Of a DNA stretch of 25,912 nt, positions 8,994-24,933 are shown one piece after another. Position numbers and translations under genes: made by a program. Source of the stretch: a virus; the IMG/VR virus record IMGVR_UViG_3300047329_000035, positions 1 through 25,912 of that record; one strand, written 5' to 3'. Under the pieces are notes generated by a model, which ran no database searches, was not told the origin of the DNA, and saw only the letters and a list, made by a program, of their open reading frames with translations. Numbering within the stretch: the first letter of the stretch is position 1; each line of letters opens with the position of its first letter.

Positions 8994-9836
8994 ATGGTTA
9001 CCGCACCGGCTACCTTTCAGCCTTTCGGGACGACCAATGTGCTGGGCAGTTTCGACGTCTCGTCGGTCGGCCTGGTGCAGGGGACCGCCTATCCCGATCC
9101 GGCGATCATGTTCAAACTGGCACACGGGGTGTTGGCGCAGGCCGAGACGCTGCCGATGTTCGGCGGCATCGGCATCTATACCGACATCCCGCCGGCCGGG
9201 TCCGTACCGCTGGGAACGCCGGTCGGCCGCGCGACCTCGCTCAGCAACCTCATCGGCTTCAGCGTCTTCGACCTCAACTATGCCGCGGTCAATAACCCGA
9301 CATCGCCGGTGCCGACGTCCGGATCGGGGATGCAGGTCAACTATTACCGGCTGGGCAGCGGCGCTCGCGTGGCGCTCAAATGCGATCCGGCGCTGATCAG
9401 CCTGCAAAGCGGTCTGACCACGCAAAGCGTCTCCTGGGATTTCGTCAATCAGAAGATCATCCCCTACCAGGTCGGTACCGCCATCGTCTCGGCGACCTAC
9501 AATTCCGGTACCGGCGCCGTCGTGCTGACCTTCGCGGCCCCGTACAATACCGACGTCGGCGATACGATCGTCGTCTCGGGCGCCACCGGCACCGGCACGT
9601 TCGCCACGATCAACGGCAACCAGCAGGTCACCGCCGTAGCCGGCAATACCGTGACCTACAATGTCGCCACGGGGCAGACCATGACCATCACCGGTGCCAC
9701 GGTCGGTACGAGCGGCATCCTGCCGGTGCAGATCCTCGACATTCAGGAGGACAACTGCATCACGGTCGCGCTCAACCCGTCGACCGGCGCCGCGACCTGG
9801 TCGCTGAGCGACTGCTGCGCGGTCGCGCTGCTCTAA
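8994..9836 (+). CDS. Putative head decoration / capsid-stabilising protein with inserted beta module
   Basis: 280 residues, with ATG after AGGAGAGAAG. It lies between the protease/scaffold and the major capsid gene, the usual place for a decoration or cement protein. The core (residues ~1-158 and ~240-280) is beta-rich: FGTTNVLGSFDV, FGGIGIYTDIPPAGSVPLG, SGSGMQVNYYRLGSGARVAL, and a C-terminus with DCCAVALL. Residues 160-239 look like a separate insertion: VVLTFAAPYNTDVGDTIVVS ... TINGNQQVTAV ... TYNVATG. The same module type occurs in the sheath, plug and wedge proteins. Two or more Cys at the very end (LSDCCAV) and one in EDNC could form disulphides or metal sites. The product name is based on position; no specific family motif is recognised for the core. 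Confidence 0.55.
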   Translation: MVTAPATFQPFGTTNVLGSFDVSSVGLVQGTAYPDPAIMFKLAHGVLAQAETLPMFGGIGIYTDIPPAGSVPLGTPVGRATSLSNLIGFSVFDLNYAAVNNPTSPVPTSGSGMQVNYYRLGSGARVALKCDPALISLQSGLTTQSVSWDFVNQKIIPYQVGTAIVSATYNSGTGAVVLTFAAPYNTDVGDTIVVSGATGTGTFATINGNQQVTAVAGNTVTYNVATGQTMTITGATVGTSGILPVQILDIQEDNCITVALNPSTGAATWSLSDCCAVALL

Positions 9837-9850
9837 CCTCTCAACCCCGT

Positions 9851-9884
9851 CTGACGACAAGGGTCCGTCAGGCGCGCAGGCGCC
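9851..9884 (+). promoter_or_regulatory. Two adjoining inverted repeats before the major capsid gene
   Basis: CTGACG (9851-9856) pairs with CGTCAG (9866-9871) around a 9-base loop. Immediately after, GGCGC (9871-9875) pairs with GCGCC (9880-9884) around GCAG. The stems share G9871, so they could stack or compete. They end 27 bases before ATG 9912, whose ribosome site is AGGGA (9898-9902). Without a T run they are unlikely to terminate transcription. mRNA stabilisation or processing ahead of the most abundant virion protein is the more natural idea. Confidence 0.4.
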
Positions 9885-9911
9885 CGGATCTCATTATAGG
9901 GACACGTAAAA

Positions 9912-10937
9912 ATGACCATTCAGGCGTCTGCGTATGAAATGGTGCACCCGAGCTTCGTCGAGCCGGAAATCATCATTCAGTATTCCCAGGCCTCCGGAGC
10001 CTTCGACCTGATCCAGGGTTCCCAGCCGCGTGTGCGGATCGCGTCGGACGACCTCGCCGTCTATATGAAGTACATGCGTCTGCGCACGAAGATCGCGGCC
10101 GCGCAGTCGACCTTCAACGAGCTGCCGGGCGTCGACATCATGAACGGCATGATCTCAACCCCGACCTATCTGACGAAGGTCCGGTCGGCCTACGATCATC
10201 ACGATGTCGCCGCCGGCGCGCGGTGGGGTTTCTCCGTTCCTGAAGCCTATCGCCTGGGCATGCGGCAGGCGAATTTCCAACTCGCCCGCGACGCGCTGCT
10301 CTACGGCTTCAATCCCCAGAACGGCGAGGGCCTGCTCAACACGAACGGGGCTTCCGCGACCAATCTGCCGCCCGATCAGAACGGCAACGATACCGTCGTC
10401 ACCTATGACAACGGCGCCATGGCCTTCTTTCTGGCGCAGCGCATTCAGCAGATGAAGACGCGCACCCTGCAGATGGGTATCGCCCGGCATTTCTCGATCG
10501 TCGGGCCGCAGGAAACGCTGGGTTCGTTCGAATACAACGTCGTCCAGCTGACCCAGTTCCAGCGTGACGGCGCCGGCACGGCGTCGACCAAGGAGACGCT
10601 GCAGTCGATCATCATGGCCAACGGGGATACGCTCTCCTGGGGCTATGATGACACGCTGAAGGGCAAAGGCGCCGGCGGGACCGATGCAGTCGTCCTGACC
10701 ATGCCGGAAATCGAGCCGCCGAAGAACCAGGCCGGCCAGATCAACACCAACGATTTCTCCAAGCTCACGCCGGGCAATCGCACCGTGACGACGCAGTATT
10801 GCGACATGGCCGCGCCGCGCGAGATCATCAGCCCGCTGGCCGGCGGCGCCACGGACAACCTCATGGAGTGGAGATTCACCTCCGGCTGGGGCGTGCGGCC
10901 CGAAGGCGTGGACATCATCAGCATGCAATATCAGTGA
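9912..10937 (+). CDS. Major capsid protein, DUF2184-like (HK97-fold type)
   Basis: 341 residues with a good ribosome site (AGGGA, 9 bases upstream). The sequence follows the DUF2184 major-capsid pattern. It has an N-terminal segment SFVEPEIIIQYSQASGAFDL, a charged E-loop-like region, then WGFSVPEAYRLGMRQANFQL with ARDALLYGFNPQNGEGLLN. A later MGIARHFSIVGPQETLGSFE precedes a C-terminal domain ending MEWRFTSGWGVRPEGVDIIS. The length fits an unprocessed capsid subunit with scaffolding supplied separately. It would assemble with the scaffold/protease encoded just upstream and be coated by the 8994 product. A long hairpin and promoter follow its stop. The family call is from memory of these motifs; the position in the operon agrees. 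Confidence 0.75.
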   Translation: MTIQASAYEMVHPSFVEPEIIIQYSQASGAFDLIQGSQPRVRIASDDLAVYMKYMRLRTKIAAAQSTFNELPGVDIMNGMISTPTYLTKVRSAYDHHDVAAGARWGFSVPEAYRLGMRQANFQLARDALLYGFNPQNGEGLLNTNGASATNLPPDQNGNDTVVTYDNGAMAFFLAQRIQQMKTRTLQMGIARHFSIVGPQETLGSFEYNVVQLTQFQRDGAGTASTKETLQSIIMANGDTLSWGYDDTLKGKGAGGTDAVVLTMPEIEPPKNQAGQINTNDFSKLTPGNRTVTTQYCDMAAPREIISPLAGGATDNLMEWRFTSGWGVRPEGVDIISMQYQ

Positions 10938-10946
10938 CGAGGCCGG

Positions 10947-10980
10947 CTAAGCGCTGACCGTGTTGACGGGACGCGCTTAG
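10947..10980 (+). promoter_or_regulatory. Strong intergenic hairpin after the capsid gene
   Basis: CTAAGCGC (10947-10954) is perfectly complementary to GCGCTTAG (10973-10980). Inside the 18-base loop CCGT (10958-10961) can pair with ACGG (10966-10969) around GTTG. This gives an 8-bp stem, a 3x3 internal loop and a 4-bp top. It lies 10 bases after the capsid stop. No T tract follows, so classical intrinsic termination is unlikely; 3'-end protection or RNase processing of capsid mRNA is plausible. It overlaps the -35 element of the promoter-like sequence below. Confidence 0.55.
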
Positions 10981-10990
10981 TCGCTATGAT
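10963..10990 (+). promoter_or_regulatory. Sigma70-like promoter for the neck/tail genes
   Basis: TTGACG (10963-10968) and TATGAT (10985-10990) are separated by 16 bases. Each hexamer differs from the sigma70 consensus at one position. The predicted start near 10997 lies upstream of ATG 11028. It is in one of the few intergenic gaps of the window, directly after the capsid gene. The -35 and spacer overlap the hairpin at 10947-10980, which only forms in RNA (or as a cruciform), so read-through transcripts and new transcripts would differ in structure. Activity is inferred from sequence only. Confidence 0.5.
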
Positions 10991-11027
10991 TTTCCGCCTC
11001 GCCATCCCCAGCGTAAGGCCCAGCCAA

Positions 11028-11633
11028 ATGGCAAAACTCTACATCGCAAACACCAGTCAGCAGACGCAGACGATCTGCTATCGGCTGGACGTCAACGATT
11101 TTGGCATGCCCGGCGTCGAGATGAAGTTCAAGGCTCACCGGACGCAGCAAATCGCGATGGGCCGGCAAGAGATGCTCGGTTCGGCCGATTTCACGATCGA
11201 CCAAATCGAGCGGATCGTGCAGCAGCTTTTCCGGTTCGGTCTGGTCGCCACCGCGGAAGCGCAGGCCGGCCGGCTGCCGCGCGCTGTCGTGCCCTATGTC
11301 TTCAATGTCGACCGGCCGGTGCCGGGGTCGGTCTTCCATGCGGTCGTCGAGCACAATCGGCTGGTGCAAATCGACGACGGCAAATATCGGCGCAAGGCTG
11401 CCGCGGTTGCAGCGGCCAATTCCGTCAAGAAGTCGCTGGAGACCAATCTCGGAATCAATGACGACGGGATGGAACTCGAGGTCTCGATCGAGCAGGACAA
11501 CCAGAGCGAGCTCGGCGAGCGGACGATCGAAGAAGGCTACCGCGTGACGCCGCGGGCCGATGGACGCGAGCCGGCGCCGGTCTCGCGCGCTGCGGCCCGG
11601 AAGGCCAAGAGGCGTCCGGATGCCCGCGCCTGA
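11028..11633 (+). CDS. Conserved phage structural/neck-region protein (MAKLYIANT family)
   Basis: 201 residues from ATG 11028, preceded by TAAGG at 11014-11018. An in-frame ATG at 10986 falls inside the -10 hexamer of the proposed promoter and was not chosen. The N-terminus MAKLYIANTSQQTQTICYRL is, as I recall, typical of a small conserved family encoded directly after capsid genes in related contractile phages. Residues ~60-90 (FTIDQIERIVQQLFRFGLVA) look like a helix. The protein then has VVPYVFNVDRPVPGSVFHAV and an acidic/basic helical C-terminus with KAKRRPDARA as a basic tail. Function unknown; a head-closure or virion-assembly role is inferred from position. It overlaps the next gene by 14 bases. 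Confidence 0.55.
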   Translation: MAKLYIANTSQQTQTICYRLDVNDFGMPGVEMKFKAHRTQQIAMGRQEMLGSADFTIDQIERIVQQLFRFGLVATAEAQAGRLPRAVVPYVFNVDRPVPGSVFHAVVEHNRLVQIDDGKYRRKAAAVAAANSVKKSLETNLGINDDGMELEVSIEQDNQSELGERTIEEGYRVTPRADGREPAPVSRAAARKAKRRPDARA

Positions 11634-11832
11634 CGTCATCACGCCGCGCGAAGCGGCGCTGGCGCCCGACGAGGTCGCGCTCTATGACCGATCCGGATGC
11701 TATATCGCGCGGGTGAAGGTCGGCGCTGCGGTTTCGATCATCATCTGCGGCAGCCGGGCCTTCTCGCGCTCGGCCGGCGGTCACTTCGCCGAGGTCAAGG
11801 CGGCGGTGTTCGGCGGGATCCCGGCGGCGTGA
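11620..11832 (+). CDS. Small hypothetical protein, 70 residues
   Basis: The start is ATG 11620, 7 bases after AAGAGG (11607-11612) and inside the 3' end of the previous gene. An upstream in-frame ATG at 11560 lacks such a site. The sequence MPAPDVITPREAALAPDEVA is followed by LYDRSGCYIARVKVGAAVSI and IICGSRAFSRSAGG, giving two short beta segments with single Cys residues. No membrane helix is convincing, although VGAAVSIIICG is hydrophobic. Its stop overlaps the next GTG start. Position in the neck block suggests a small virion or assembly protein; no family recognised. Confidence 0.5.
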   Translation: MPAPDVITPREAALAPDEVALYDRSGCYIARVKVGAAVSIIICGSRAFSRSAGGHFAEVKAAVFGGIPAA

Positions 11833-12296
11833 GCATCAACCCATGCTGCCCGCCCTTCTGCCCGACGCTGCCCGGCTTCCTTTGGTTCGTGCGGAACGTC
11901 ATGGGTGTGCCGCAACTGGCCCTCCCCGATGCCGCACCGGTTATCGGCTACGCCTTCAGCCGTTCGCTGACGTGGGTCAATCGGGCGATCCAGTGCGCCG
12001 ACCCGGAGAACTATCAGGCCGCCGTCTATAATCTGGCTGGCGACCGGCTCATCAATTGGGCGCAGGACACACTGCCGCAGACCTATTTCGCCGACCAGCG
12101 CGAGCAGTACGACGTCACGGCGTTTCAGGCCGGCGTCGTGTCGGCCGCGGGCGACGATGGCACGAACACGTCGATTCAGGTCGCCGAAGGGTTCAAGGAT
12201 CTGACGGCGGCCGATCTGCAGAACCTCAAGACGCCATGGGGACGCGAATATATCGGGATCGCGCAATCATACGGCACTGTATGGGGAATTTCATGA
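11829..12296 (+). CDS. Putative head-tail connector/completion protein
   Basis: 155 residues from a GTG overlapping the previous stop (GTGA). The product starts MSINPCCPPFCPTLPGFLWF. It continues VRNVMGVPQLALPDAAPVIG, YAFSRSLTWVN, NYQAAVYNLAGDRLINWAQD and ends DLQNLKTPWGREYIGIAQSYG. The pattern of short helices with LxxAVYNLAGDxLI and LKTPWGR is one I associate with conserved neck-region proteins in contractile phages, placed where gp6/gp15-type connectors are encoded. The N-terminal CCxxxC is unusual and could bind a metal or be oxidised. The connector role is from gene order plus overall helical character, not a diagnostic motif. Confidence 0.55.
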   Translation: MSINPCCPPFCPTLPGFLWFVRNVMGVPQLALPDAAPVIGYAFSRSLTWVNRAIQCADPENYQAAVYNLAGDRLINWAQDTLPQTYFADQREQYDVTAFQAGVVSAAGDDGTNTSIQVAEGFKDLTAADLQNLKTPWGREYIGIAQSYGTVWGIS

Positions 12297-12703
12297 CCGG
12301 CTTTCTGAACAAGCTGCGGATCGCCGTCATCTTCCATGATTGCCCCGGTCTGAACCTCGGCGCCGGCGATCTCGCCCAGGCGGGCGTCCGGTTCAAGACC
12401 GAAGCGTTGCCGCCTGTGATCAACGCCGAGACCGGTGTCGCCGAGCCGCCGCGTGCGCTGAAAGCGACGCTTTCCATTAGCGTGCTCAAGACGCTGCCCG
12501 TCGCCGAGGCCTATAAGCAGACACTGGAAACGGATCGTCGCGTCGGCAGGATCTGCTATCGCCCCGACACGTCCGCCCTTTCGCCATTCTTCCTGCTCGA
12601 TTGCATGCTTGAGCGCATTGCCGGCGAGACGTCCAACGGCACTGATGCCGCGATCGAGTTCATCATCACCGGCACGTCCCCGGTCAATCAGCAGGGCGGG
12701 TAA
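12293..12703 (+). CDS. Tail-tube-like paralogue in the neck region
   Basis: 136 residues from an ATGA overlap. It aligns along its length with the tail tube protein at 16085. Shared features are LN[KR]LR..V.F.D.P.LN at the start, L..AG, then L.I...K.LP[VI]A[ED].YKQ..ET...VG....R.D.S.L.P in the middle, and I..TG near the end. Such a protein is predicted to have the tube/terminator beta-barrel fold shared by phage tube, terminator and hcp-like proteins. Located between connector and completion genes, it may form a ring at the head-proximal end of the tail or a specialised first tube ring. The similarity is visible by eye; the role is inferred. No truncation is seen, and it is 9 residues shorter than the tube. 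Confidence 0.6.
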   Translation: MTGFLNKLRIAVIFHDCPGLNLGAGDLAQAGVRFKTEALPPVINAETGVAEPPRALKATLSISVLKTLPVAEAYKQTLETDRRVGRICYRPDTSALSPFFLLDCMLERIAGETSNGTDAAIEFIITGTSPVNQQGG

Positions 12704-13212
12704 TGGCGAAGCGCCTGGCGCGAATCAAACTCGGCGTGGTCGATATCCCCTATGTCGAGAATGAGACGAAGCAGGCGCTCAGCAACCGCGTGAAGGCCGG
12801 CAAGAAGAACCCGCATAGCCGGCCGCCTGGCACGGCAATCAGCACGGGCGACGTCGCCGAGATCCTGGAAGCCAAATACGGGATCATGAAGCGGTTCTTC
12901 AAGGCCAAGGAAAAGGAGATCCGGGCTCGCCTTGAGGAAGACATCCGCGACGCGCTTGAGACGCTCATGGCGACCGGCCACGAACTGAAGAACCCCTTCG
13001 GCGATACCGAGGCCAAGATCAAGGAACTCTTCAGCGATTTCCTGTCGCTGCGCGAGATCGAGCGGCTCGGCATCCCCGGCGTTCCGACCAAGGCGGCCCA
13101 GCGCGGTGTCAATCACCGCATGAAGCGGCCCTATGTGAAGCGCGGGCCCAGGCCTTCTTTCATCGATACCGGGCTGTTTGAGGCCAGTTTCGCGGCCGAA
13201 ATCGAGAAGTGA
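12703..13212 (+). CDS. Putative tail-completion / neck protein (gp10-like)
   Basis: 169 residues; the ATG shares its A with the previous TAA (TAATG). The N-terminal third is basic (MAKRLARIKLGVVDIPYVEN, KAGKKNP). The centre is a long charged helix, AEILEAKYGIMKRFFKAKEK then EIRARLEEDIRDALETLM. The C-terminus has SLREIERLGIPGVPTKAAQR and GPRPSFIDTGLFEASF. The ending R-P-S-F-[IV]-D-T-G-L-[YF]-x-x-S-F is characteristic of tail-completion or neck proteins of the HK97 gp10 / virion-morphogenesis type that join tail and head. Order in the cluster agrees. I hold the general class with more confidence than a specific family. Confidence 0.55.
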   Translation: MAKRLARIKLGVVDIPYVENETKQALSNRVKAGKKNPHSRPPGTAISTGDVAEILEAKYGIMKRFFKAKEKEIRARLEEDIRDALETLMATGHELKNPFGDTEAKIKELFSDFLSLREIERLGIPGVPTKAAQRGVNHRMKRPYVKRGPRPSFIDTGLFEASFAAEIEK

Positions 13213-13216
13213 TCCT

Positions 13217-14197
13217 ATGAAGCCGACGACCCCAATCGGCGGCGTGCTCCATGCCGGCGTCGAGACGATCTCCTATGATCAGCGGATCATCTTCACGATG
13301 TATATCCGCCTGATCCTGCCGGCGGATGGGTTCGTCTTCTATGTCCGCTCCGATCTGCAGAGCAGCAGTTCGACCTGGCAGGCGGCCCAGGCGGCAGTTG
13401 CGGCACTCGGCCTGCCGGCGAGCTTTACCGCCAAGGGATCGCTGCACTATGGCAGCGAGGTCAGTCAGGACGAGGCACAGACCTACGCCGTCAACACGAT
13501 CGAACTGACATCGCAGCAGGAACTGGCGCCGCTCAACCGGGTCGCCCCGCTGGTCGTCTATCTGTCCGAGGTCGGCGGCGTGCGCTACGCCTTCAGCGAC
13601 CGCGGCAAGTTCTACCGCCAAGCCGATATCTGGCACTATGGCGGCGATGCGATCTATCCGGACGTCGATTCGATCGTCATCGATGACGCGGCGCTGATCG
13701 ACACGGGCGATGTCGTCGTCTCGAACAGCCTGCCTTTCTGGCTCGGCCTGCTGACTTATGCGATCCCGGCGCTGCCGATCCCCAATCCGGGGATCGTGCT
13801 CTATCCGTCCTACGTCGTGCCGAAGAACCTGCCGCCGCCCTATGGTGCCGTGCATATCGAGCCAGGCAGCACAGTCGGCATTTCGTCGGCACCATCCTTC
13901 CGGCCGGGCGGGTTTCAGCACCAACTGTGTAGCGACGAGGTGACGGTCACGCTCTTCGGCCTGCGCAATGACCAGGCCCTGCAGTTCATCGCCTGGGTCG
14001 GGCAATATTCGCTCTTCACCGGTAATTTCGGCGTGATGAATATCCCAGTCATCTCCGACGAGAAACGCGGTCAGACCGAACTGAACGCGATTGCTCAAAA
14101 GAAGACCGTCAAGTTTCAGGTCGACTACTACCAGGCGCGGGCCGTGGCATACGGCACGAACCTGATCAAATCCGCCGAGCCGTCTTACCGGTTCTAA
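13217..14197 (+). CDS. Conserved structural protein, probable tail terminator/neck component
   Basis: 326 residues. ATG 13217 lies 4 bases after the previous stop; the longer frame from 13178 would sit in the preceding gene. The N-terminal half (RIIFTMYIRLILPADGFVFY, SSSTWQAAQAAVAALGLP) and the C-terminal half look like two domains. The C-terminal half has VVSNSLPFWLGLL, IVLYPSYVVPKNLPPPYGAV, VTVTLFGLRNDQALQFIAWV and GNFGVMNIPVISDEKRGQTE, ending KKTVKFQVDYYQARAV. The latter resembles neck/terminator-like proteins of contractile phages. It follows completion genes and precedes the sheath, the usual terminator position. Function is inferred from order; the repeated LP-P-PYG motif is notable but unexplained. 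Confidence 0.5.
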   Translation: MKPTTPIGGVLHAGVETISYDQRIIFTMYIRLILPADGFVFYVRSDLQSSSSTWQAAQAAVAALGLPASFTAKGSLHYGSEVSQDEAQTYAVNTIELTSQQELAPLNRVAPLVVYLSEVGGVRYAFSDRGKFYRQADIWHYGGDAIYPDVDSIVIDDAALIDTGDVVVSNSLPFWLGLLTYAIPALPIPNPGIVLYPSYVVPKNLPPPYGAVHIEPGSTVGISSAPSFRPGGFQHQLCSDEVTVTLFGLRNDQALQFIAWVGQYSLFTGNFGVMNIPVISDEKRGQTELNAIAQKKTVKFQVDYYQARAVAYGTNLIKSAEPSYRF

Positions 14198-14218
14198 TTC
14201 CGCCAGGGAGTTGAGAGA

Positions 14219-14599: not shown

Positions 14600-14649
14600 T
14601 CGACCAAGCCGCAGCGTCGACACCGAAGATCCGTTTGGAGTAAGGACAC

Positions 14650-16077
14650 ATGGCAAATCCGATCGTCAACGCGACGGTGTCGATCACCGCGGCCCCGCGG
14701 CCGAACACGCTGCAGAAGACGGGCGCGCTGCTGAGCCAGGGCGGTACCACGCTCGCGACCGGCACCTATGCGCTCATTACCCAGCCCGCCGACCTGACGC
14801 CGCTCCAGGCCGCTCCCCTGGCCGTGACGTCGATTGCCTGGGCCGGTGGCACTGCGACCGTCACCACTGCGGCCGCGCACGATGTCACGAGCGGCGATCA
14901 TTTCTGGACAACGATCGCCGGCGCCACGACGACGATCTATAACGGTCTGGTCTTGGCGACGGCGACCGGCGCATCGACCTTCACCTATGCGCTCGTCAGC
15001 GACGGGGGCACTACGCCGGCAACCGGCACGATCACCTATACGCCGCGCAATTCGGGCGAATTGCTGCAGATGGTGACGACCTTCTATGCCCAGGGCGCCA
15101 ATCAGTCGGTCTATGTGCTGGAACTCGGTGCCGGCGAGGCGGCAGCGGGCGTGACCGAACTCACGACGCTGATCACCAACAAATCGTGGTCGCCCGCACC
15201 CGGTCAGGCTGCTCTGTCGAACCCGCAAGGGCGCTTCTATGCCTATCTCGTGCCGCGGTCCTGGGATGGCGTGTCGGGTTTCCTGACGCTGCTGACGTCG
15301 CTCGACGGGCCGTTCGCGGCCACCTATTTCTACATCACGACCACGACTGGCACGATCACCGATTATACCGCGATCCTGAAGTCGGCCTATCTGCTGGTCG
15401 AAGCGCCCGGTGCCACGGCGCTGGAGTTCCAGGCTGCCGGGCCTTTCTGGGATCTGCTCAACACGAACCCGAGCGCCACGAACAAGGTGGCACCGTTCGA
15501 ATATCGCTTTCAGTTCGGTGTCACACCTTGGCCGTCGACCGGACAGTCTTCGACGCTGGCGACGATCGCGGCCGAGAATGGCAACTATGTCGGCACCGGC
15601 CAGCAGGCGGGAATCAGCACGGCGCTGATTTTCGGCGGCCAGTATGCCGATGGGAACCCGGTCAATTACTGGTATTCGATCGACTGGGCCGTGATCAACG
15701 GTACGCAGAACGTCGGCGCTGCCGTGATCAACGGATCGAATAACCCGATCAACCCGCTGTATTATAATCAGCCGGGCATCAATTCCCTGCAGCAAGTCTT
15801 GGCGTCGACCATGACCAGTGCTTCGACCTTCGGCATGCTGCTCAACCCGGTCGTGCAGACCGAACTGGACGGTCCGGCGCTCGACCAGGCCCTCGATAAT
15901 GGGATCTACGACGGGTATACCGTCGTGAATGCCATTCCCTTTCCGGCTTATTCGGTCGAAAATCCCGACGATTACGGCGTCGGGGTCTATTCCGGCTTGT
16001 CGGTCTCGCAATACACCCCGTTGCGCGGGTTCGACAAGATCGACTTCAACATCAACGTGACGAATTTCGGAGGCTAA
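14650..16077 (+). CDS. Contractile tail sheath protein with inserted beta module
   Basis: 475 residues, with a ribosome site GGAG/AAGGA at 14637-14646. Sheath features from memory of DUF3383-type and related proteins are FYAYLVPRSWDG, YWYSIDWAVINGTQNVGAAV, INGSNNPINPLYYNQPGINS and a C-terminal strand PLRGFDKIDFNINVTNFGG suited to the inter-subunit sheath handshake. The immediate downstream tube gene supports it. Residues 59-132 (GTATVTTAAAHDVTSGDHFW, IYNGLVLATATGASTFTYAL) look like a surface-exposed insertion of the same kind found in the decoration-like, plug and wedge proteins. The sheath contracts to drive the tube through the envelope. This is the main evidence that the phage is a myovirus. 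Confidence 0.75.
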   Translation: MANPIVNATVSITAAPRPNTLQKTGALLSQGGTTLATGTYALITQPADLTPLQAAPLAVTSIAWAGGTATVTTAAAHDVTSGDHFWTTIAGATTTIYNGLVLATATGASTFTYALVSDGGTTPATGTITYTPRNSGELLQMVTTFYAQGANQSVYVLELGAGEAAAGVTELTTLITNKSWSPAPGQAALSNPQGRFYAYLVPRSWDGVSGFLTLLTSLDGPFAATYFYITTTTGTITDYTAILKSAYLLVEAPGATALEFQAAGPFWDLLNTNPSATNKVAPFEYRFQFGVTPWPSTGQSSTLATIAAENGNYVGTGQQAGISTALIFGGQYADGNPVNYWYSIDWAVINGTQNVGAAVINGSNNPINPLYYNQPGINSLQQVLASTMTSASTFGMLLNPVVQTELDGPALDQALDNGIYDGYTVVNAIPFPAYSVENPDDYGVGVYSGLSVSQYTPLRGFDKIDFNINVTNFGG

Positions 16078-16084
16078 GCGCGCC

Positions 16085-16522: not shown

Positions 16523-16528
16523 TTGGTC

Positions 16529-17089: not shown

Positions 17090-17220
17090 TCGCCGAAGTT
17101 CTGGACTGGGCTTCGACCGAAGGATTTGAAGACCTCATGCGGCACTATGGCGTCTCGCAATGGGAAAGCCCGTTGCAATTCCGCCAGCGCTACCTGCTGC
17201 GGGCACTCAGGGATATCTAA
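16993..17220 (+). CDS. T-part of the tail assembly chaperone (made as G-T fusion by -1 frameshift)
   Basis: This -1 frame has no convincing start of its own: its first possible start is the TTG within the slip region. It is therefore expected only as a fusion running from 16529 through the heptamer to 17220. It reads GRIAHLVELYGVRRFLGDIE, AGREYWREDGLIAEVLDWAS and ends ESPLQFRQRYLLRALRDI. That is a small helical domain rich in Trp, Tyr, Arg and Glu, like T-parts that contact the tape measure. The fusion would be about 230 residues. The tape measure starts 6 bases later, the expected order. Known for lambda G/GT; here inferred from sequence. Confidence 0.7.
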   Translation: MGRIAHLVELYGVRRFLGDIEAGREYWREDGLIAEVLDWASTEGFEDLMRHYGVSQWESPLQFRQRYLLRALRDI

Positions 17221-17226
17221 TCCGCG

Positions 17227-19227
17227 ATGGCAATCAAGACGATCGTCGATGTCGAAGTCGATCCCGAGGGATCCTTCGAGAAATTCAAGGCGATGTTCGA
17301 AGATTACGCCAAGCAGCTCGCGGAACTGCCGAAGGCCTGGGGCGCCCATAACGAGGCCGCGGAGAAGTCCGGCGATGCGCTGGCCGGCGCGCTGGGCAGC
17401 CTAGAGAGCGAGATTTCGGCGTTGCGAGATCAGATGACACTGCTCGACAACGTCAATATCAAGACCGAAAAGACGGCGTCGAACTGGGAGAAGATCGAGA
17501 AGCGCACAAAGGACACCGCGAAGAGCGTCTTCCAGATCACGACGTCGCTCTTGCGCTGGGAAGCGCTCAGCGCGGCTGTGACGGGTGTCCTAGGCGCCGG
17601 CGGGCTCTGGGGGCTCGACAAGCTGGCTCAGGGCGTCGGCGCCGGACGGCGGTCCTCGCAGGGCCTAGGCACGGGGTACGGCGAGCAAGCGTCTTTCGAG
17701 ACGAACTTTCAGCGCCTGATCGACGCGCACGGCTTTCTGGGCGGCGTCAATGAAAGCCTGACCGACGTCACGAAGCGGTTCAGCCTCTACGGTGCCGGGC
17801 TCAGCGAGACCGATATCAGCGCTGCCGGCGGCGACACTGGCAAGGTCGCGGTCGAAGCGCTGCAATCGCTGAAGCGGCTGGCCGATCTCACGCCGACCGA
17901 AAACCTTGCCCAGTTGATCCAGTCGCGTGGGATCGGCAATCTCGTGACCGTCGAAGATCTGCGACGGCTGAAAGCGACGTCTCCGGAGGAATTTGCCGGC
18001 ATCGTCGCGAAGTATTGGAAGAACGCGCCGCAGTTCGATCTGGCCGAAAAGACGCAGCAGGCGTGGCAGGATCTCGGGGTGCAGCTCGAGAGCGCGTGGC
18101 TCAAGATCGACAACAGCTTCGTGAAGGGGTTGACCGGTCTGGCCGAGCCGATCGCCCATCTGAGCGACGCCTTCAGCGACGCGGTCAAATCCTTCCTCGA
18201 TAATCCGAACCTGCCGACCTGGATTGCAGAATTTGGTGCACAGATCGAGAAGCTCGCCGAATGGATGAAAACCGACGAGTTCAAGAAGGATGTCGAGTGG
18301 CTGGGCAATGAGGTCAGCGAACTCGCGATGGCGATCGGCAGCGCCGTCAAATGGATCAGCGGCACGCTGGGAATCGGCGGCGGTTCGTCCGAGCCCGCCC
18401 ATACCGACGAAGAGGACCGCAAGACGGTCAATGATTGGGCCAAGGATCATCCGGGCAATACACCGATTCCGCACGAGATCGCCGAGGCCGCGCGCCGCGT
18501 GATCAAGCGCAGCGCCATGTCGGGCAAGATGACACCGGAGGAAGCGGGCAAGAACTTGGACAAGATCAGCAAGCGCGAGATCCAGGGCGCGGCCGCAGCG
18601 TCGCCGTCGGCGAAGCAGGCCGATACCGGCGGGGCGCCGGGCGGCAGCGTGCCAGGCACCGGCAGCAACGAGCAGCGCCTCGCGAGCTATTTCCTCTCCC
18701 AGGGTTGGACGAAAGCGCAAGTCGCCGGATTGCTCTCCAATTTCGATCCGGAAAGCGGTCTCAGAGCGGATGCCTTCAATCCGGCTGGCGGGGGTCACGG
18801 CGCCAAAGGGCTCGCACAATGGCGCGGTAAGCGTCAGGAGGATTTCAAAAATCTATTTGGACATGACATTCTGCAGGGCACGCTAGACGAGCAGGCCAGA
18901 TTTGTGCAATGGGAACTGACCCACACGCTCAAAAATGCTGGCAATAAGCTCCGCGGTGCCAGATCGGAGACTGAAGCCAGTGAGATCATTACGCGTTTTT
19001 ACGAGGGGCCCGACCCAGCGCATATTGACGCAATAAGCAATGCGCGCGCCGCTGGGGCGAGGAAAATCGTCAAGCATCTTTCTGACGATGGCAAAGACCA
19101 CGCTCGGCCGGCGCAGGGCGCTGATCAGACCGCGACGGGCCGCCCGGGCGGGACAGTCAAGGTCACGATCAGGAATGCGCCGGGCAACCATCCGGCCGTA
19201 TCCGTGACGCAGGCGACCGGCCAGTGA
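17227..19227 (+). CDS. Tape measure protein with C-terminal tail-lysozyme domain
   Basis: 666 residues, at the short end for a contractile tail. N-terminal helices with coiled-coil character (LESEISALRDQMTLLDNVNI) lead to a hydrophobic stretch near residues 107-136 (AALSA-type, VTGVLGAGGLWGL), as in tape measures that enter the membrane. The middle is helical. A Gly/Ala/Pro linker (~460-478) leads into a domain at ~480-600: ASYFLSQGWTKAQVAGLLSN, F-DPESGLRADAFNPAG, KGLAQWRGKRQEDFKNLFG, TRFYEGP. This fits the phage tail lysozyme family (PF18013), with E509 in the ESG motif as the likely catalytic acid. It would set tail length, then locally open peptidoglycan. Bases ~18840-19080 are more AT-rich than their surroundings. 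Start ATG is 6 bases after the T-part stop. Confidence 0.8.
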   Translation: MAIKTIVDVEVDPEGSFEKFKAMFEDYAKQLAELPKAWGAHNEAAEKSGDALAGALGSLESEISALRDQMTLLDNVNIKTEKTASNWEKIEKRTKDTAKSVFQITTSLLRWEALSAAVTGVLGAGGLWGLDKLAQGVGAGRRSSQGLGTGYGEQASFETNFQRLIDAHGFLGGVNESLTDVTKRFSLYGAGLSETDISAAGGDTGKVAVEALQSLKRLADLTPTENLAQLIQSRGIGNLVTVEDLRRLKATSPEEFAGIVAKYWKNAPQFDLAEKTQQAWQDLGVQLESAWLKIDNSFVKGLTGLAEPIAHLSDAFSDAVKSFLDNPNLPTWIAEFGAQIEKLAEWMKTDEFKKDVEWLGNEVSELAMAIGSAVKWISGTLGIGGGSSEPAHTDEEDRKTVNDWAKDHPGNTPIPHEIAEAARRVIKRSAMSGKMTPEEAGKNLDKISKREIQGAAAASPSAKQADTGGAPGGSVPGTGSNEQRLASYFLSQGWTKAQVAGLLSNFDPESGLRADAFNPAGGGHGAKGLAQWRGKRQEDFKNLFGHDILQGTLDEQARFVQWELTHTLKNAGNKLRGARSETEASEIITRFYEGPDPAHIDAISNARAAGARKIVKHLSDDGKDHARPAQGADQTATGRPGGTVKVTIRNAPGNHPAVSVTQATGQ

Positions 19228-20024
19228 GCCTCAATCCGCTCGGCCTCGCGTGGAAGCTCAGCTTCCAGCTTTGCCCGATCTTCCTGACGGGAGGCATCGC
19301 CGGCAGCATGCCGGGCGGCGCACTTCCGATCATCCTCTTGACCGAGGCGCTCAATTTCACGGGCGGCATCACGGAGCCGTCATCGATCGCCGATCTCGAC
19401 ACCATGTTCGGGAATTTCCAGCCGCTGCCTGGATCGAAACTGATCGACCAACAAGCAGCGTTATACCCTTTCGCAAATCAGAAAGTCGCGGCGAATGCGG
19501 TCATCACCGAACCGCTGACCGTCTCGCTGCGCATGGATTGCCCGGTCCGAGAAGGGGCCGGCTACTTCCAGAAGCTGGCGACCATGACGGCGCTTCAGGC
19601 GACGCTGGCGCAGCACAATGCGGCGGGCGGCACCTATACCGTCGCGACGCCGACCTATTTCTACACCAATTGTCTCTTGCGGTCCCTCGAGGACATCAGC
19701 GACGGCGCCACGAAACAGGCACAGCTCTCCTGGCGTTGGGATTTCATTCAGCCGCTCCTGACCCAGGCGCAGGCGATCCAGGCGCAAAACAACCTCATGT
19801 CGCAAATCAGTAACGGCAGCCAGATCAACGGGCAGCCGAGCTATTCCGGCCTCAATCCGACGGTCGGCTCGTCGAGTTCGGTCGCGAGCCCGTCCGTGGT
19901 GCCCGGCGGCGCCGGCTCGGCCGGCTCGCTCGCCGGCGGCAGTTTCTCGTCGGGCGCCGGTGCCTCCGGTGCCGCGGTCGGTGAGGGCGCTGGAAGCGGT
20001 GCCGGATCGGCAAGCGAAGCATGA
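19224..20024 (+). CDS. Baseplate/tail protein encoded after the tape measure
   Basis: 266 residues; a GTG overlaps the tape-measure stop (GTGA). The first ~195 residues are ordered: NPLGLAWKLSFQLCPIFLTG, GIAGSMPGGALPIILLTEAL, LIDQQAALYPFANQKVAANA, TLAQHNAAGGTYTVATPTYF and SWRWDFIQPLLTQAQAIQAQ. The remainder (~205-266) is a low-complexity Ser/Gly/Ala tail with few charges, probably flexible. The family is one I recall directly after tape measures in simple contractile phages, where it probably contributes to the hub-tape connection like gp53 or LysM-type baseplate proteins. No LysM motif is seen, so the exact role is not established. The overlap with the next gene (ATGA) suggests stoichiometric expression with the plug protein. 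Confidence 0.55.
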   Translation: MSLNPLGLAWKLSFQLCPIFLTGGIAGSMPGGALPIILLTEALNFTGGITEPSSIADLDTMFGNFQPLPGSKLIDQQAALYPFANQKVAANAVITEPLTVSLRMDCPVREGAGYFQKLATMTALQATLAQHNAAGGTYTVATPTYFYTNCLLRSLEDISDGATKQAQLSWRWDFIQPLLTQAQAIQAQNNLMSQISNGSQINGQPSYSGLNPTVGSSSSVASPSVVPGGAGSAGSLAGGSFSSGAGASGAAVGEGAGSGAGSASEA

Positions 20025-20518
20025 CGACCTTCACCGATTTCACGCCGTCGAACGCCGCCGTTCCGCCATTCCAGTTCCAGGCGCAATTCGACGGCGAAAC
20101 CTATATCGTTTACGTGCAATGGCTTGTCTTCGCACAGCGCTGGTACTTCACCGTTGCCGACCTGGCCGGCGACATCATCGTGTTTGCGGCACTCGTCGGT
20201 TCGCCGGTCGGCGCCACGATCGAGAGCGCCGTGTGGTCAGAAGGCTTCGTGACACTGGTCACATCGCAGCCGCATGGCTTCCTGGCCGGCGCCACGGTCG
20301 ACGCGACCGTCGTCAACTGCGCGCCGGCCGCGCTGAACGGCATCTTCCCGGCCTATGTGAATGACGCCTTCACGCTGACATTCCCGCTGGTCGCCGATCC
20401 GGGGCTGACGACGCAACTTGGTTCTGTCCAGTATAATGTCAATCTGGTCGGCGCCTATTTCAATACGAGCACGCTCGTTTTCCGGACGGCGAATAATCAG
20501 TTCGAAGTGAGCCCGTGA
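20021..20518 (+). CDS. Baseplate plug protein (Pam3 gp18 / DUF6983-like) with inserted beta module
   Basis: 165 residues from an ATGA overlap. The ends match a compact baseplate-plug family: FTPSNAAVPPFQFQAQFDGE, TYIVYVQWLVFAQRWYFTVA, DLAGDIIVFAALVGSP and C-terminal LVGAYFNTSTLVFRTANNQF. That is the F-P...P-P-F-x-F-Q-x-x-L/F-D-G...Q-R-W-Y...D-L-x-G...S-T-L-V-F-R layout. Residues 67-137 (FVTLVTSQPHGFLAGATVDA, ALNGIFPAYVNDAFTLTF) interrupt it and belong to the recurrent HG[FY] module. Plug proteins sit in the baseplate hub, between tube and spike. The family call is from memory and supported by the following hub and spike genes. Confidence 0.65.
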   Translation: MTTFTDFTPSNAAVPPFQFQAQFDGETYIVYVQWLVFAQRWYFTVADLAGDIIVFAALVGSPVGATIESAVWSEGFVTLVTSQPHGFLAGATVDATVVNCAPAALNGIFPAYVNDAFTLTFPLVADPGLTTQLGSVQYNVNLVGAYFNTSTLVFRTANNQFEVSP

Positions 20519-21492
20519 GATATTACAATATCGTCCTGTCGCAGCCGAACGGGGGTGCCCAGGTGCTGGCATTCACCTCGTTCGCCGGCGGCAAGACGCT
20601 GCCGGGCGCGCTCAACGTCGAGATCGATATCTTTTCTGCTCCCTATGCCCGGCCGGTCGGCGGGAGCTTCGTGCGGATCTGGGGCATTCCGCTGGCCTAT
20701 ATCAGCCAGGCCAAGAATCTGACGGGCCTAGATTGCACAGTCTATGCCGGGATGCAGAAGGGTTTGCCGCTGGCGAATCCGGCGCAGGCGGGTATCATCG
20801 CCCAAGGCCAGGTCTATCAGCCGTTCGGCAATTGGGTCGGCACCGACATGACCCTCGACCTCCTGCTTCAACCCTATGTCGGAACGCTCGCCAAGCCGGC
20901 AAATCTCAGCATCTCATGGGCCAAGGGGACGTCCCTGAGCCAGGCCATTCAGCGCAGCCTGCAGACGGCGTATCCTGGATTCAAGCTGAATATCAACATC
21001 AGCCCGAAACTCGTCCTGGCCTATGACGAGCACGGCTTTTATTCCGGCCTAGCCGAACTCTCGCAATGGATCCAGCAGAAAAGTCAGGACATCGTCGGCG
21101 GTACTTATCCGGGCGTGTCGATCTCGATCAATCAGAAGACGATCAACGTCTATGACGGGACGAGCCAGAAGACGCCGAAAGCGATCCTGTTTCAGGATTT
21201 GGTCGGTCAGCCGACATGGATCGATGCGCCGCAGATCCAGTTCAAGACGGTCATGCGCGCCGACATCCCGCTTGGCGGCTACGTGACGCTGCCCAAGACA
21301 CTCGCGACCACGACGCCAGGCTCTGCGATCGGGACACCGGCGCGGAACTCGGCCAGTTTCCAGGGATCGTTTCTGGTGACCCTCGTCCGTCATGTCGGCA
21401 ACTTCCGCCAGCCGACCGGGGATGCTTGGGTCTCGATCTTCAATGCGACGCCGACGCAGCAGAATTTGCAGACCGGCGCGCTCAGCAGCTGA
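20515..21492 (+). CDS. Baseplate hub protein (gp27/gp44-like)
   Basis: 325 residues from a GTG overlapping the plug stop. It starts MRYYNIVLSQPNGGAQVLAF and continues LNVEIDIFSAPYARPVGGSF, VRIWGIPLAYISQAKNLTGL, then QAIQRSLQTAYPGFKLNINI and IVGGTYPGVSISINQKTINV. The alternation of beta-barrel-like halves with a central helical insertion is typical of hub proteins that adapt the six-fold tube to the three-fold spike. C-terminal PLGGYVTLPKTLATTTPG and FLVTLVRHVGNFRQPTGDAW include a late histidine-containing strand seen in such hubs. Located between plug and spike genes. The general role is well supported by context; the specific family is not diagnosable by eye. Confidence 0.65.
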   Translation: MRYYNIVLSQPNGGAQVLAFTSFAGGKTLPGALNVEIDIFSAPYARPVGGSFVRIWGIPLAYISQAKNLTGLDCTVYAGMQKGLPLANPAQAGIIAQGQVYQPFGNWVGTDMTLDLLLQPYVGTLAKPANLSISWAKGTSLSQAIQRSLQTAYPGFKLNINISPKLVLAYDEHGFYSGLAELSQWIQQKSQDIVGGTYPGVSISINQKTINVYDGTSQKTPKAILFQDLVGQPTWIDAPQIQFKTVMRADIPLGGYVTLPKTLATTTPGSAIGTPARNSASFQGSFLVTLVRHVGNFRQPTGDAWVSIFNATPTQQNLQTGALSS

Positions 21493-21501
21493 GACGCCCC
21501 G

Positions 21502-22107
21502 ATGTCGGATAATTCTCAAAAGACCCATTTCGCCCAGGAACTCAACCGATTCGCCGCGCAAAAGGCGCTTTCCGTCATGGAACGGATCGGCCGGAATCTG
21601 CCCTGCAAGGTGAAAAGCGTCATGGGGTCGATCGTTACCGTGACGTTCGAACTCCAATCGAAATACACGCTCGACCCGGTCACGATGCCCTATTTTGGAC
21701 CAGAATATATCCGCTATCCCGTCCAGGTCGGCGACCTAGGCGTGACGGTTGCAATCGACACCTATATGGGCGGTATCAGTGGGCTGGGCGGCGGGACGGC
21801 CGATCTTCGGCCGGTGTCCAATCTGTCGGCGCTATTCTTCATGCCGGTGGCGTCGACAAACTGGTCGATGACCGACGATCCAAATGCCGTCGTGATCTAC
21901 GGGCCCGATGGTGCTGTGATCCGCACCGTCGACAAGACGGCGGCGCTGACCGTCAAAGGCGGCTCTAGCGGTTTCCACGGGCCATTCAGTTTTGACGCGC
22001 TCGTGACCATGACCGCCGACCTGGTCGTCAACATGATCACGCAATCGACCCACGTCCACGAAGTATCGGCCGATCCTGGTTTGACCGGGCCGCCGCGTAA
22101 TCCATGA
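21502..22107 (+). CDS. Baseplate spike protein (gp138/gpV-like) with C-terminal HxH
   Basis: 201 residues. The N-terminal helix (FAQELNRFAAQKALSVMERI) is followed by an OB-fold-like region LPCKVKSVMGSIVTVTFELQ and the conserved TMPYFGPEYIRYPVQVGDLG, VTVAIDTYMGGISGLGGGTA. A shaft then reads IYGPDGAVIRTV and TKTAALTVKGG-type repeats. The tip region contains STHVHEVSADPG with H184 and H186 spaced as HxH. In gpV- and gp138-type spikes such histidines bind a metal ion at the needle tip. The protein pierces the outer membrane after sheath contraction. OB domain and tip motif are seen; metal binding is family knowledge. Confidence 0.7.
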   Translation: MSDNSQKTHFAQELNRFAAQKALSVMERIGRNLPCKVKSVMGSIVTVTFELQSKYTLDPVTMPYFGPEYIRYPVQVGDLGVTVAIDTYMGGISGLGGGTADLRPVSNLSALFFMPVASTNWSMTDDPNAVVIYGPDGAVIRTVDKTAALTVKGGSSGFHGPFSFDALVTMTADLVVNMITQSTHVHEVSADPGLTGPPRNP

Positions 22108-22120
22108 GAGGGCTTCGATT

Positions 22121-22501
22121 TTGCGCACATATGGCAGGATCTGGGATGAGTTCGGACAAAACCCGAAATGGTATGTCGTCGAGACCGATATCAATGGCTA
22201 TAACGATGCTGTATATCTGGTCACCCTGCAGCAGATCCTGAAGCAAAACCTCGGCGAAAGTCCGTTCTATGCCAATTACGGCTTGCCGGACGAGCAATCC
22301 GTCGTGACCCAGATTGCGCCCGATTATTACGTCGCCCAGACGCAGCAGCAAATGGCACCTTACTTCGCCAATCTGAATATAGCTCGCGCCCCGTCTCCCG
22401 ATGGAATCACGCCGACTTATGCGGTCAGCGTCCTGCTCCAGAATGGCGCAGCGCGCGTGCTCCAGATTGGGCCGCCAGGCGGTTCGGAGTTCCCCGGCTG
22501 A
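22121..22501 (+). CDS. gp25-like baseplate protein / sheath initiator
   Basis: 126 residues from a TTG at 22121. The start is supported by GAGAGGG (22106-22112) 8 bases upstream; the only nearby ATG (22104) is in another frame, and an in-frame ATG is not near. The product MRTYGRIWDEFGQNPKWYVV, ETDINGYNDAVYLVTLQQIL, KQNLGESPFYANYGLPDEQS and VVTQIAPDYYVAQTQQQ fits the W/gp25 family, which initiates sheath polymerisation on the baseplate. The classical EPR motif of T4 gp25 is not obvious, as in simple myophages. Its stop overlaps the wedge gene (TGATG). TTG starts usually lower expression, which suits a hexameric component. Confidence 0.65.
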   Translation: MRTYGRIWDEFGQNPKWYVVETDINGYNDAVYLVTLQQILKQNLGESPFYANYGLPDEQSVVTQIAPDYYVAQTQQQMAPYFANLNIARAPSPDGITPTYAVSVLLQNGAARVLQIGPPGGSEFPG

Positions 22502-23931
22502 TGAGCAACACGGCAGGATTTCCCGTCATCGTCGGGCCGGCCGGCGCGCAGCCGACGGCGCCGGCCGCGATCCTCCAGCAGCTGATCCAGCTCGTTACCG
22601 CGACGAACCCCGGCTATACCGCCAACCTTCCGACGTCGCTCATTGAGGACGTCTCGAGCACGGCCGTTGCTGGCATCGTGCTGTGCGATCAAGCGCGCGT
22701 CGAGTTCATCAATTCCATCACGCCATTCGGGGCCAATGCGTTCACCTTGGCACAATTGGGCGAGATGCTGGGCGTCCCGATCGCTGGCGAGACGAATACC
22801 AGCGTCAGCGTCGTCTTCACCGGGCCGCCCGGCTTTGTCATCCCGGTCGGCTTCACGGTCAGCGATGGTACCTATCAATATTCGGTCGTCGATGGCGGCG
22901 TGCTCGATAGCGGCGGCATCACGGCACCGCTCTTCGCGCTGGCGACCATTACCGGATCCTGGGTCGTCCCGCCCAATACCGTCGTCAATCTCGTGACGTC
23001 GGTGCCGTCGTCGCTGAGCCCGGCGCTGGCCGTGACCAACCCGCTGGCCGGCACGCCGTCGGTCGGCGCTCAGACCGAAGAGGGCTATCGGGCCGATGTT
23101 CTGCAAGCGAACCTCGCGTCGTCGCAGGGCACGCCCCGGCTCCTGAAGACCTATCTGCGCAATGTCGGCGGCGTGCAGTCGCGTCTGATTTCGATCAATC
23201 AGGAATCGGACGGCTGGGAAATCATCGTCGGCGGTGGAGATCCCTATCAGATAGCCTATGCGATTTTGACGGCGCTGTTCGACGTCTCGACGCTTGTCGG
23301 GTCGGTCCTGGCCGTGACCGCTATCACGAAGGCTAATCCAGGCGTCGTGACTACTGATCTGGCACATGGCTATGCAAGCGGCCAGGTCATCGAGATCACG
23401 GGTGTCGTCGGTATGACCGCGGTCAACGGCGTGCCTTTCACGATAACGGTCATCAGTCCTACGACATTCTCGATCGGCGTCGACACGAGCGGCTATGCGA
23501 CCTATGTCTCTGGCGGCGTCGTGACGCCGAACTTGCGGAACGAGACCGTCACGCTGAACGACTATCCGGACACCTATAACGTGACCTTCGTCGTGCCGCC
23601 GCAGCAAAGCCTTGGCATGGTCGTCACATGGTCGACGACGTCGACGAACTTCGTCTCGCCGGCGGCGGTCGCTCAGAACGCGGTGCCGGCGCTGGTCGAC
23701 TATATCAACTCGATCGTGGTCGGGCAGCCCGTGAATCTCTTGCAGGCGACGAACGCCTTTCAGGAAGCGATTTCGGGCATTCTCGCTCCGAATCTGCTGA
23801 GCAACCTCACTTTCGCGGTGACGATCAACGGCAACGCCGTCTCGCCCGAAATGGGGACGCAGCTCGTCTTCGGCGACCCTGAGAGCTATTTCTTCGCCAG
23901 CTCCGCGACGATCACGGTTATTCAAGCGTGA
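22501..23931 (+). CDS. Baseplate wedge protein, gpJ-like, with inserted beta module
   Basis: 476 residues from an ATG overlapping the previous stop. Order of features: N-terminal helical segment (LIQLVTATNPGYTANLPTSL, IEDVSSTAVAGIVLCDQARV), then LGEMLGVPIAGETNTSVSVV and the TGPPGFVIPVGFTVS strand pair. These are followed by TEEGYRADVLQANLASSQGT and VGGVQSRLISINQESDGWEI, as expected for the J/gp6 family. Residues 272-343 (VVTTDLAHGYASGQVIEITG, AVNGVPFTITVISPTTFSIG) are an inserted HG[FY] module. The C-terminal domain includes LVDYINSIVVGQPVNLLQAT. Six wedges form the baseplate ring and trigger contraction. Family call rests on gene order and these motifs. Confidence 0.75.
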   Translation: MSNTAGFPVIVGPAGAQPTAPAAILQQLIQLVTATNPGYTANLPTSLIEDVSSTAVAGIVLCDQARVEFINSITPFGANAFTLAQLGEMLGVPIAGETNTSVSVVFTGPPGFVIPVGFTVSDGTYQYSVVDGGVLDSGGITAPLFALATITGSWVVPPNTVVNLVTSVPSSLSPALAVTNPLAGTPSVGAQTEEGYRADVLQANLASSQGTPRLLKTYLRNVGGVQSRLISINQESDGWEIIVGGGDPYQIAYAILTALFDVSTLVGSVLAVTAITKANPGVVTTDLAHGYASGQVIEITGVVGMTAVNGVPFTITVISPTTFSIGVDTSGYATYVSGGVVTPNLRNETVTLNDYPDTYNVTFVVPPQQSLGMVVTWSTTSTNFVSPAAVAQNAVPALVDYINSIVVGQPVNLLQATNAFQEAISGILAPNLLSNLTFAVTINGNAVSPEMGTQLVFGDPESYFFASSATITVIQA

Positions 23932-24926: not shown

Positions 24927-24933
24927 CCGGGGC

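What the first reader, a model, noticed from the sequence alone, without database searches (positions are those of the whole stretch)
9471..23529. One beta-rich HG[FY]-type module inserted in four different virion proteins
Similar stretches of about 70-80 residues interrupt four proteins: decoration-like (residues 160-239, bases 9471-9710), sheath (59-132, 14824-15045), baseplate plug (67-137, 20219-20431) and gpJ-like wedge (272-343, 23314-23529). The pattern is V-V-T or V-T-L, then [AP]-H-[GD]-[FYV]-x-[AST]-G-x-x-V, then [IY]-NG, then a T-[FY] strand pair. The clearest case (LAHGYASGQV...AVNGVPFTI...TFSIGVDTSGY) looks like what databases label E1-FCCH-like in phages. The same surface domain spread over head, tail shaft and baseplate suggests a mobile adhesion or decoration module, or repeated gene conversion.
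Basis: partly seen in the sequence, partly recalled or inferred. Interest (0 to 1): 0.65.

Follow-up and report, generated by a model that had tools for sequence, protein, structure and literature searches.

The report
Roaming barrel domain in phage shells
One small barrel-shaped domain, the same fold as a piece of our ubiquitin-activating enzyme, has been inserted separately into the head, tail sheath, baseplate and (in relatives) fibre proteins of a family of tailed phages, even inside itself, so it behaves like a movable add-on part of the virus particle.

Summary
Confirmed: window residues deco 159-241, sheath 57-136, plug 66-138 and wedge 271-343 are homologous. A profile built without window sequences finds all four and no other window protein (2.6e-23, 5.6e-12, 4.5e-11, 1.6e-4). 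All six profile pairs score 91-99.9% probability; none of 1,698 control pairs exceeds 22%. Every host protein has relatives with a clean empty site, so the segments are insertions.

The fold is the E1-FCCH beta-barrel. The wedge copy passes Pfam E1_FCCH and matches mouse UBA1 at 5e-12; the modelled deco copy superposes on UBA6/UBA1, endosialidase barrels and the T1 tail-tube outer domain (Z 8-9.6).

It moves: decoration proteins with >=50% identical cores carry unrelated module lineages or none; seven sheaths carry a whole decoration-type module inside their own module; two tailspike/fibre proteins carry copies of the same genome's wedge or deco module. Within-genome gene conversion is not supported. 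Wedge and first sheath copies are old and mostly vertically inherited.

Function is inferred: weak glycan adhesion about 45%, particle stabilisation about 35%. Closest known kind: promiscuous Ig-like domains of phages, here with another fold.

The parts
8994..9836 (+). capsid decoration-protein homologue (280 aa) carrying a module
   Evidence: phrog_6268 2.2e-50 with the profile 69 aa shorter; core aligns to capsid proteins of T1/FCWL1 (Z 14.6), Pam3 (12.1) and E217/Pa193 decorating proteins
9468..9716 (+). module in decoration protein, residues 159-241 (deco-type lineage)
   Evidence: leave-window-out HMM 1.6e-4; hhalign 91-97.8% with the other three; model residues 157-240 match UBA6/UBA1 FCCH Z 8.1-9.4; empty in L105, L230, L098, L004, L005, L097, L099
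14650..16077 (+). tail sheath protein (475 aa)
   Evidence: phrog_205 9e-20; model pLDDT 85.9, matches contractile sheaths Z up to 25.7
14818..15057 (+). module at sheath site 1, residues 57-136
   Evidence: HMM 5.6e-12; empty in L098 and L135-L137; second module nested here in seven relatives
15408..15409 (+). empty sheath site 2, between residues 253 and 254; filled by a module in relatives (tandem pair in L008)
   Evidence: flanking alignments end at 253/254; 15 of 125 unique sheaths have a module here
20021..20518 (+). baseplate plug protein (165 aa, Pam3 gp18-like)
   Evidence: PF22479 2.3e-4, just under the Pfam cut-off; phrog_8737 2e-21
20216..20434 (+). module in plug, residues 66-138
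   Evidence: HMM 4.5e-11; hhalign 99.9% with the sheath module; empty in most relatives
22501..23931 (+). baseplate wedge / gpJ-like protein (476 aa)
   Evidence: phrog_6 9e-22
23311..23529 (+). module in wedge, residues 271-343 (E1_FCCH proper)
   Evidence: PF16190 5e-17, 62.2 bits vs cut-off 29.5; mouse UBA1 FCCH 5.4e-12; absent from Rac-SA53 and pPE4

Best explanation
The four segments are copies of one autonomously folding beta-barrel domain (E1-FCCH fold, about 66-80 residues) that this phage lineage and its relatives insert in frame into loops of virion proteins. Shown here: common descent of the four, clean empty sites in relatives, exchange of module lineages at the decoration site, insertion of a decoration-type module into the sheath's own module, and copying of wedge or deco modules into fibre proteins of the same genome. 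Inferred: rare non-homologous (or short-homology) recombination moves the DNA; the small barrel tolerates insertion, so the host protein still assembles; the barrels sit on the outside of head, sheath and baseplate and act as many-copy, low-affinity glycan or envelope contacts that help the particle stay near its host. I give about 45% to the adhesion role and about 35% to stabilising contacts between neighbouring subunits. The confidence below is for the inserted mobile domain, not for the function.
For: Homology. Fold; wedge to UBA1. Empty sites: decoration protein, sheath site 1, plug and wedge. Mobility: AU test rejects deco modules as one clade, p = 1.9e-5; window versus L223 deco core 61%, module 30%; L107 deco module 63% identical to L102 sheath site-2 module; nested module in seven independent sheaths at one point; L025 fibre 66% identical to its own wedge module; L234 fibre sister to its own deco module, 100/97; module also in a head-tail protein of L006. 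Adhesion: fold match to K1F/phi92 endosialidase barrels, the K1F barrel being a sialic-acid site and host-discrimination hotspot (PMC12632334); module sits in a pectate-lyase/S74 tailspike of L025; an fn3 domain is found in the plug of L006 just after the core motif that precedes the module. Exposure: the fold-matching T1 tail-tube domain (residues 16-94) lies outside the tube (PMC11945409).
Against: No ligand or binding residue identified. Surface exposure in these four proteins was not modelled in an assembly; the P1 plug is peripheral but sits between hub and wedge (PMC12810830). Most sequence groups by site, so movement is rare: 11-14 label changes on the trees against 50-76 for shuffled labels. 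The wedge module evolves like its core (53% vs 55%), which fits a structural role as well as adhesion. Trees rest on 73-85 columns. No DNA signature of a mechanism was sought.
Confidence: 0.85

Rival explanations
1. Structural cement: the barrels pack against neighbouring subunits and stabilise capsid, sheath and baseplate; they bind nothing outside the particle.
For: The wedge copy is nearly universal and as conserved as its core; the sheath site-1 copy is present in 121 of 125 sheaths. A review of sheath proteins offers both stabilisation and adhesion for extra domains (PMC9230969).
Against: Clean absence in relatives whose proteins otherwise align well; cassette exchange at the decoration site; a different fold (fn3) in the plug of L006. 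Packing interfaces would resist such swaps.
Confidence: 0.35
2. Ancestral domains lost many times: modules were present in all four proteins of the ancestor and are now being lost.
For: For wedge and sheath site 1 only two and four of the sampled proteins lack the module, so gain and loss cannot be told apart there.
Against: Deco modules are not one clade (AU p = 1.9e-5); the plug and sheath site-2 inserts are patchy (3 changes each); the nested insert cannot be ancestral to its own container.
Confidence: 0.1
3. Repeated gene conversion keeps the modules of one genome alike.
For: A weak same-genome excess for plug versus sheath site 1 (35.5% vs 33.5%, p = 0.036, one of 11 tests); two within-genome copies into fibre proteins.
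Against: No same-genome excess at the other site pairs; strong site fidelity on trees; window copies only 18-30% identical.
Confidence: 0.03
4. Convergence: small beta-rich segments of similar composition that are not related.
For: The deco copy is below Pfam thresholds and its window BLAST scores are at noise.
Against: Profile comparison with 1,698 controls; fold match of the deco copy; intermediates such as the nested deco-type modules and the L006 sheath hitting E1_FCCH at 4e-7.
Confidence: 0.02

Closest known systems
Ig-like domains of phage virion proteins (Fraser et al. 2006, cited in PMC10684548; known to me from memory)
   Same: A small beta domain found in unrelated head, tail and baseplate proteins, patchily present, thought to aid weak surface attachment.
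   Different: Fold is the E1-FCCH barrel, with no Ig family hit for the four window proteins. Nested insertion and cassette exchange at fixed sites are documented here.
Pfam PF16190 E1_FCCH (first catalytic cysteine half-domain of eukaryotic E1)
   Same: Wedge copy passes the cut-off; deco model superposes on UBA6/UBA1.
   Different: Phage copies sit in virion proteins, not in adenylating enzymes; sheath, plug and deco copies of the window do not reach the cut-off.
Tail-tube outer domain of phage T1 (gp41 residues 16-94, called Ig-like in PMC11945409)
   Same: Matched fold (9l0f_G 15-94, Z 8.5, rmsd 2.2), inserted in a tail protein, solved on the outer surface; phrog_584 (major tail protein) also matches the wedge module, 2.4e-7.
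   Different: One protein of a siphophage; here four proteins of a myophage.
Beta-barrel domain of K1F/phi92 endosialidase tailspikes (PF12195)
   Same: Fold match Z 9.0-9.6; K1F barrel is a sialic-acid site (PMC12632334).
   Different: No phage of this group passes the PF12195 cut-off.
Extra domains of contractile sheath proteins (PMC9230969)
   Same: Added domains on a conserved sheath core, away from the tube.
   Different: That survey describes mostly Ig-like additions; the FCCH barrel, its nesting and its sharing with other proteins were not found in the passages I read.

Membership tests
Pfam PF16190 E1_FCCH | Whole-protein score over the curated cut-off (29.5 bits), wedge copy | tested here: met
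   62.2 bits, 5e-17
Pfam PF16190 E1_FCCH | Same cut-off, sheath, plug and deco copies | tested here: not met
   no PF16190 hit; kinship rests on profile comparison
Pfam PF16190 E1_FCCH | FCCH fold, deco copy | tested here: met
   model residues 157-240 vs UBA6/UBA1 Z 8.1-9.4, rmsd about 2
Pfam PF16190 E1_FCCH | FCCH fold, sheath copy | tested here: inconclusive
   same six-strand order in the model; structural hit list filled by whole sheaths
Pfam PF12195 endosialidase beta barrel | Score over cut-off (35 bits) | tested here: not met
   best 18.2 bits among 14 records, none over cut-off
Promiscuous phage Ig-like domains | Insertion of one domain family in several unrelated virion proteins | tested here: met
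Promiscuous phage Ig-like domains | Immunoglobulin fold | tested here: inconclusive
   no Ig family hit and FCCH structures at the top of the list, but absence from that list excludes nothing
Promiscuous phage Ig-like domains | Addition by programmed frameshift in some cases | not tested
   the window copies are in frame inside single ORFs; frameshift signals not sought
Minimal myophages (Pam3-like) | Pam3 gp18-like plug family | tested here: inconclusive
   PF22479 22 bits vs cut-off 24.2 in the window; L006 homologue passes, 36.8 bits

The most novel reading that the evidence does not exclude
The FCCH barrel is a phage-wide glycan-contact cassette that jumps between head, tail, baseplate and fibre proteins, and the FCCH insert of eukaryotic E1 enzymes descends from this phage-borne family (itself an insert in the adenylation domain).
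Probability: 0.2. Interest if true: 0.85.

Novelty: new variant of a known kind. Interest (0 to 1): 0.6.

Why it matters
Domain promiscuity on phage particles is known mainly for Ig-like folds. This gives a second, unrelated-looking fold with the same behaviour, with clean before-and-after states at mapped sites, a domain inserted inside its own kind, and exchanged cassettes on near-identical cores. That makes the question of what such add-on domains do directly testable by deletion at a known empty site. It also explains database labels such as 'endosialidase' on decoration proteins and 'ubiquitin-activating enzyme' on phage tail proteins, and raises the origin of the eukaryotic E1 FCCH insert.

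Tried and rejected
Plain BLAST between the four window modules: only sheath-plug is significant. tblastn of the isolated sheath and deco modules against phage records: no match, so the wider context survey rests on the wedge copy. A first count of plug inserts was wrong because sheath ORFs were taken as plug orthologues; corrected. A first core-versus-module comparison used wrong ORFs for new loci; redone. Deco monophyly on the smaller set was borderline (AU p = 0.052) and was decided by the larger set. No paper on FCCH domains in phages was found in the held library, which lacks most subscription journals. No megablast match of the module-bearing region (8994-25836) to known phages.
Full report
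What the window is. The window is an IMG/VR viral contig of 25.9 kb. It carries the head, tail and baseplate genes of a small contractile-tailed phage in the same order as Klebsiella phage Chronis, Yersinia phage YenM_06.16-1, Pantoea phage PdC23 (Certevirus), Rac-SA53 and Shewanella phage QDWS. No nucleotide match to known phages was found over 8994-25836.

Checking the observation. Starting from wedge modules of relatives and iterating a profile HMM with every window sequence left out, the final profile scores wedge 274-341 at 2.6e-23, sheath 61-127 at 5.6e-12, plug 70-136 at 4.5e-11 and deco 173-234 at 1.6e-4. The next window hit, a second weak stretch of the deco protein, is at 18, and no other window protein is found. 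In profile-profile comparison all six module pairs have probability 91-99.9%. None of 217 module-versus-other or 1,481 other-versus-other tile pairs exceeds 22%.

Insertion, not core. For each protein there are relatives with a clean empty site: decoration protein in L105 (57% identical over the matched core), L230, L098, L004, L005, L097 and L099; sheath site 1 in L098 and L135-L137; plug in L041, L091, L094, L013 and L014, and wedge in Rac-SA53 and pPE4. The family profiles agree: phrog_6268 is 211 aa against 280 in the window, phrog_8737 91 aa against 165.

Fold. AlphaFold2 models of the decoration protein (pLDDT 79, about 80-93 in the module) and the sheath (85.9) show the same six-strand order with a short turn at the NG motif. 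The decoration core matches capsid and decoration proteins of T1, FCWL1, Pam3, E217 and Pa193 (Z 9-14.6). Its module matches UBA6/UBA1 FCCH (Z 8.1-9.4, rmsd about 2), the beta-barrels of phi92 and K1F endosialidases (Z 9.0-9.6) and the outer domain of the T1/FCWL1 tail tube (Z 8.5-8.9). The wedge module matches Pfam E1_FCCH at 5e-17 and mouse UBA1 at 5.4e-12. The sheath copy was not aligned to FCCH structures on its own, because whole sheaths fill the list. Wedge and plug were not modelled.

Distribution. In 125 unique sheaths, 104 have the site-1 module alone, 14 are counted with one copy at each of sites 1 and 2, one has a tandem pair at site 2 (L008), two are counted with two copies at site 1, and four have none. 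Site 2 lies exactly between window residues 253 and 254. With a decoration-type profile, seven sheaths (L041, L117, L150, L158, L159, L163, L176) are seen to carry a complete decoration-type module inside their own module, at the same point between the second strand and the AHG turn; the rest of the container module continues after it. One of the seven is from a bacterial genome assembly (L117), the others from separate viral contigs, so this is not one chimeric contig. Wedge modules are near universal. Plug and sheath-2 inserts need three changes each on the core tree. Wedge-type modules also occur in podophage tail tubular B and stabilisation proteins, a Pseudomonas major tail protein and Rhizobium phage wedges.

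Mobility. At the decoration site, cores at least 50% identical carry modules as low as 21-30% identical; the window and L223 have core 61%, module 30%. Deco modules as one clade are rejected (AU p = 1.9e-5; a smaller set gave 0.052). The L107 decoration module is 63% identical to the L102 sheath site-2 module. The L025 tailspike (pectate-lyase fold plus S74 chaperone) carries a module 66% identical to the wedge module of the same genome. A 1,494-aa protein of the L224 genome carries a module sister to that genome's decoration module (100/97). Overall movement is rare: 11-14 label changes against 50-76 shuffled. Same-genome modules are not more alike than different-genome ones, which removes repeated gene conversion. 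The window's wedge module is closer to UBA1 (36%) than to its three companions (18-30%) and falls in a clade with UBA1 and other phage FCCH domains. So the window holds at least two module lineages.

How it most likely works. Shown: a self-contained barrel inserted in loops, tolerated at several sites, exchangeable. Inferred: rare recombination inserts it; the barrels project from the particle. For T1 the fold-matching domain is outside the tube (PMC11945409). For K1F the barrel is a sialic-acid site and host-discrimination hotspot (PMC12632334). An fn3 domain is found in the plug of L006 (PF00041 1.3e-6), following the same VGSP motif of the plug core (by eye). I therefore prefer weak glycan or envelope contact (about 45%) over pure stabilisation (about 35%); the remainder is no single function or another one. 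The even evolution of the wedge module with its core (53% vs 55%) fits stabilisation there; different sites may have different roles.

Novelty. Ig-like domains with this behaviour are known; a survey of sheath proteins attributes most extra sheath domains to Ig-like folds (PMC9230969), and domain shuffling in phage tail proteins is established (PMC10684548). I found no held paper describing FCCH-type modules in phages. I rate it a new variant of a known kind.

Noticed in passing
window 23311-23529: The wedge module is closer to the FCCH domain of mouse UBA1 (36% identity, 5.4e-12) than to the other three modules of the same phage; the E1 FCCH and this phage family share a clade.
   Followed up: partly
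L006:14743-15426: Plug homologue with a fibronectin type III domain (PF00041 1.3e-6) after the VGSP motif that precedes the FCCH module in the window plug; the ORF also begins with plug-C-terminus-like sequence, not explained.
   Followed up: partly
L098:25241-26578 (minus strand): Shewanella phage QDWS sheath lacks the site-1 module but carries a different repeat insert (GSGYTSAPTVTFS twice) further along.
   Followed up: no
L095:28438-29298, L096:5303-6175: Decoration-protein homologues are annotated 'endosialidase' in public records, probably because of the module's likeness to the endosialidase barrel (Chronis homologue: PF12195, E 0.054).
   Followed up: partly
PDB 9l0f/9jlf (phage T1 and FCWL1 tail tube, residues 15-94): The outer domain called Ig-like in the T1 paper (gp41 16-94) superposes on the FCCH-like module (Z 8.5-8.9).
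   Followed up: partly
L006:7357-8100: A homologue of the window protein at 11697-12296 (head-tail region) also carries a module (6.7e-14 with the module profile; E1_FCCH 1.3e-4).
   Followed up: partly
window 7061-8932: 623-aa ORF; the relatives' syntenic genes are annotated NUDIX hydrolase, and the window ORF begins with NUDIX-like sequence followed by a long Lys/Ala/Glu-rich stretch, in the usual place of a prohead or scaffold gene.
   Followed up: no
window 3334-6207 and 24934-25836: A 957-aa Ala/Gly/Thr-rich protein and a Gly_rich_2 protein (PF21722 8.4e-6) both end in glycine-rich beta segments, probable fibre or adhesin-type tips.
   Followed up: no
window 1988-2422: Homologue of podophage GP4 fibre protein gp80 (PF23140 3.7e-15) ahead of the head genes.
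   Followed up: no
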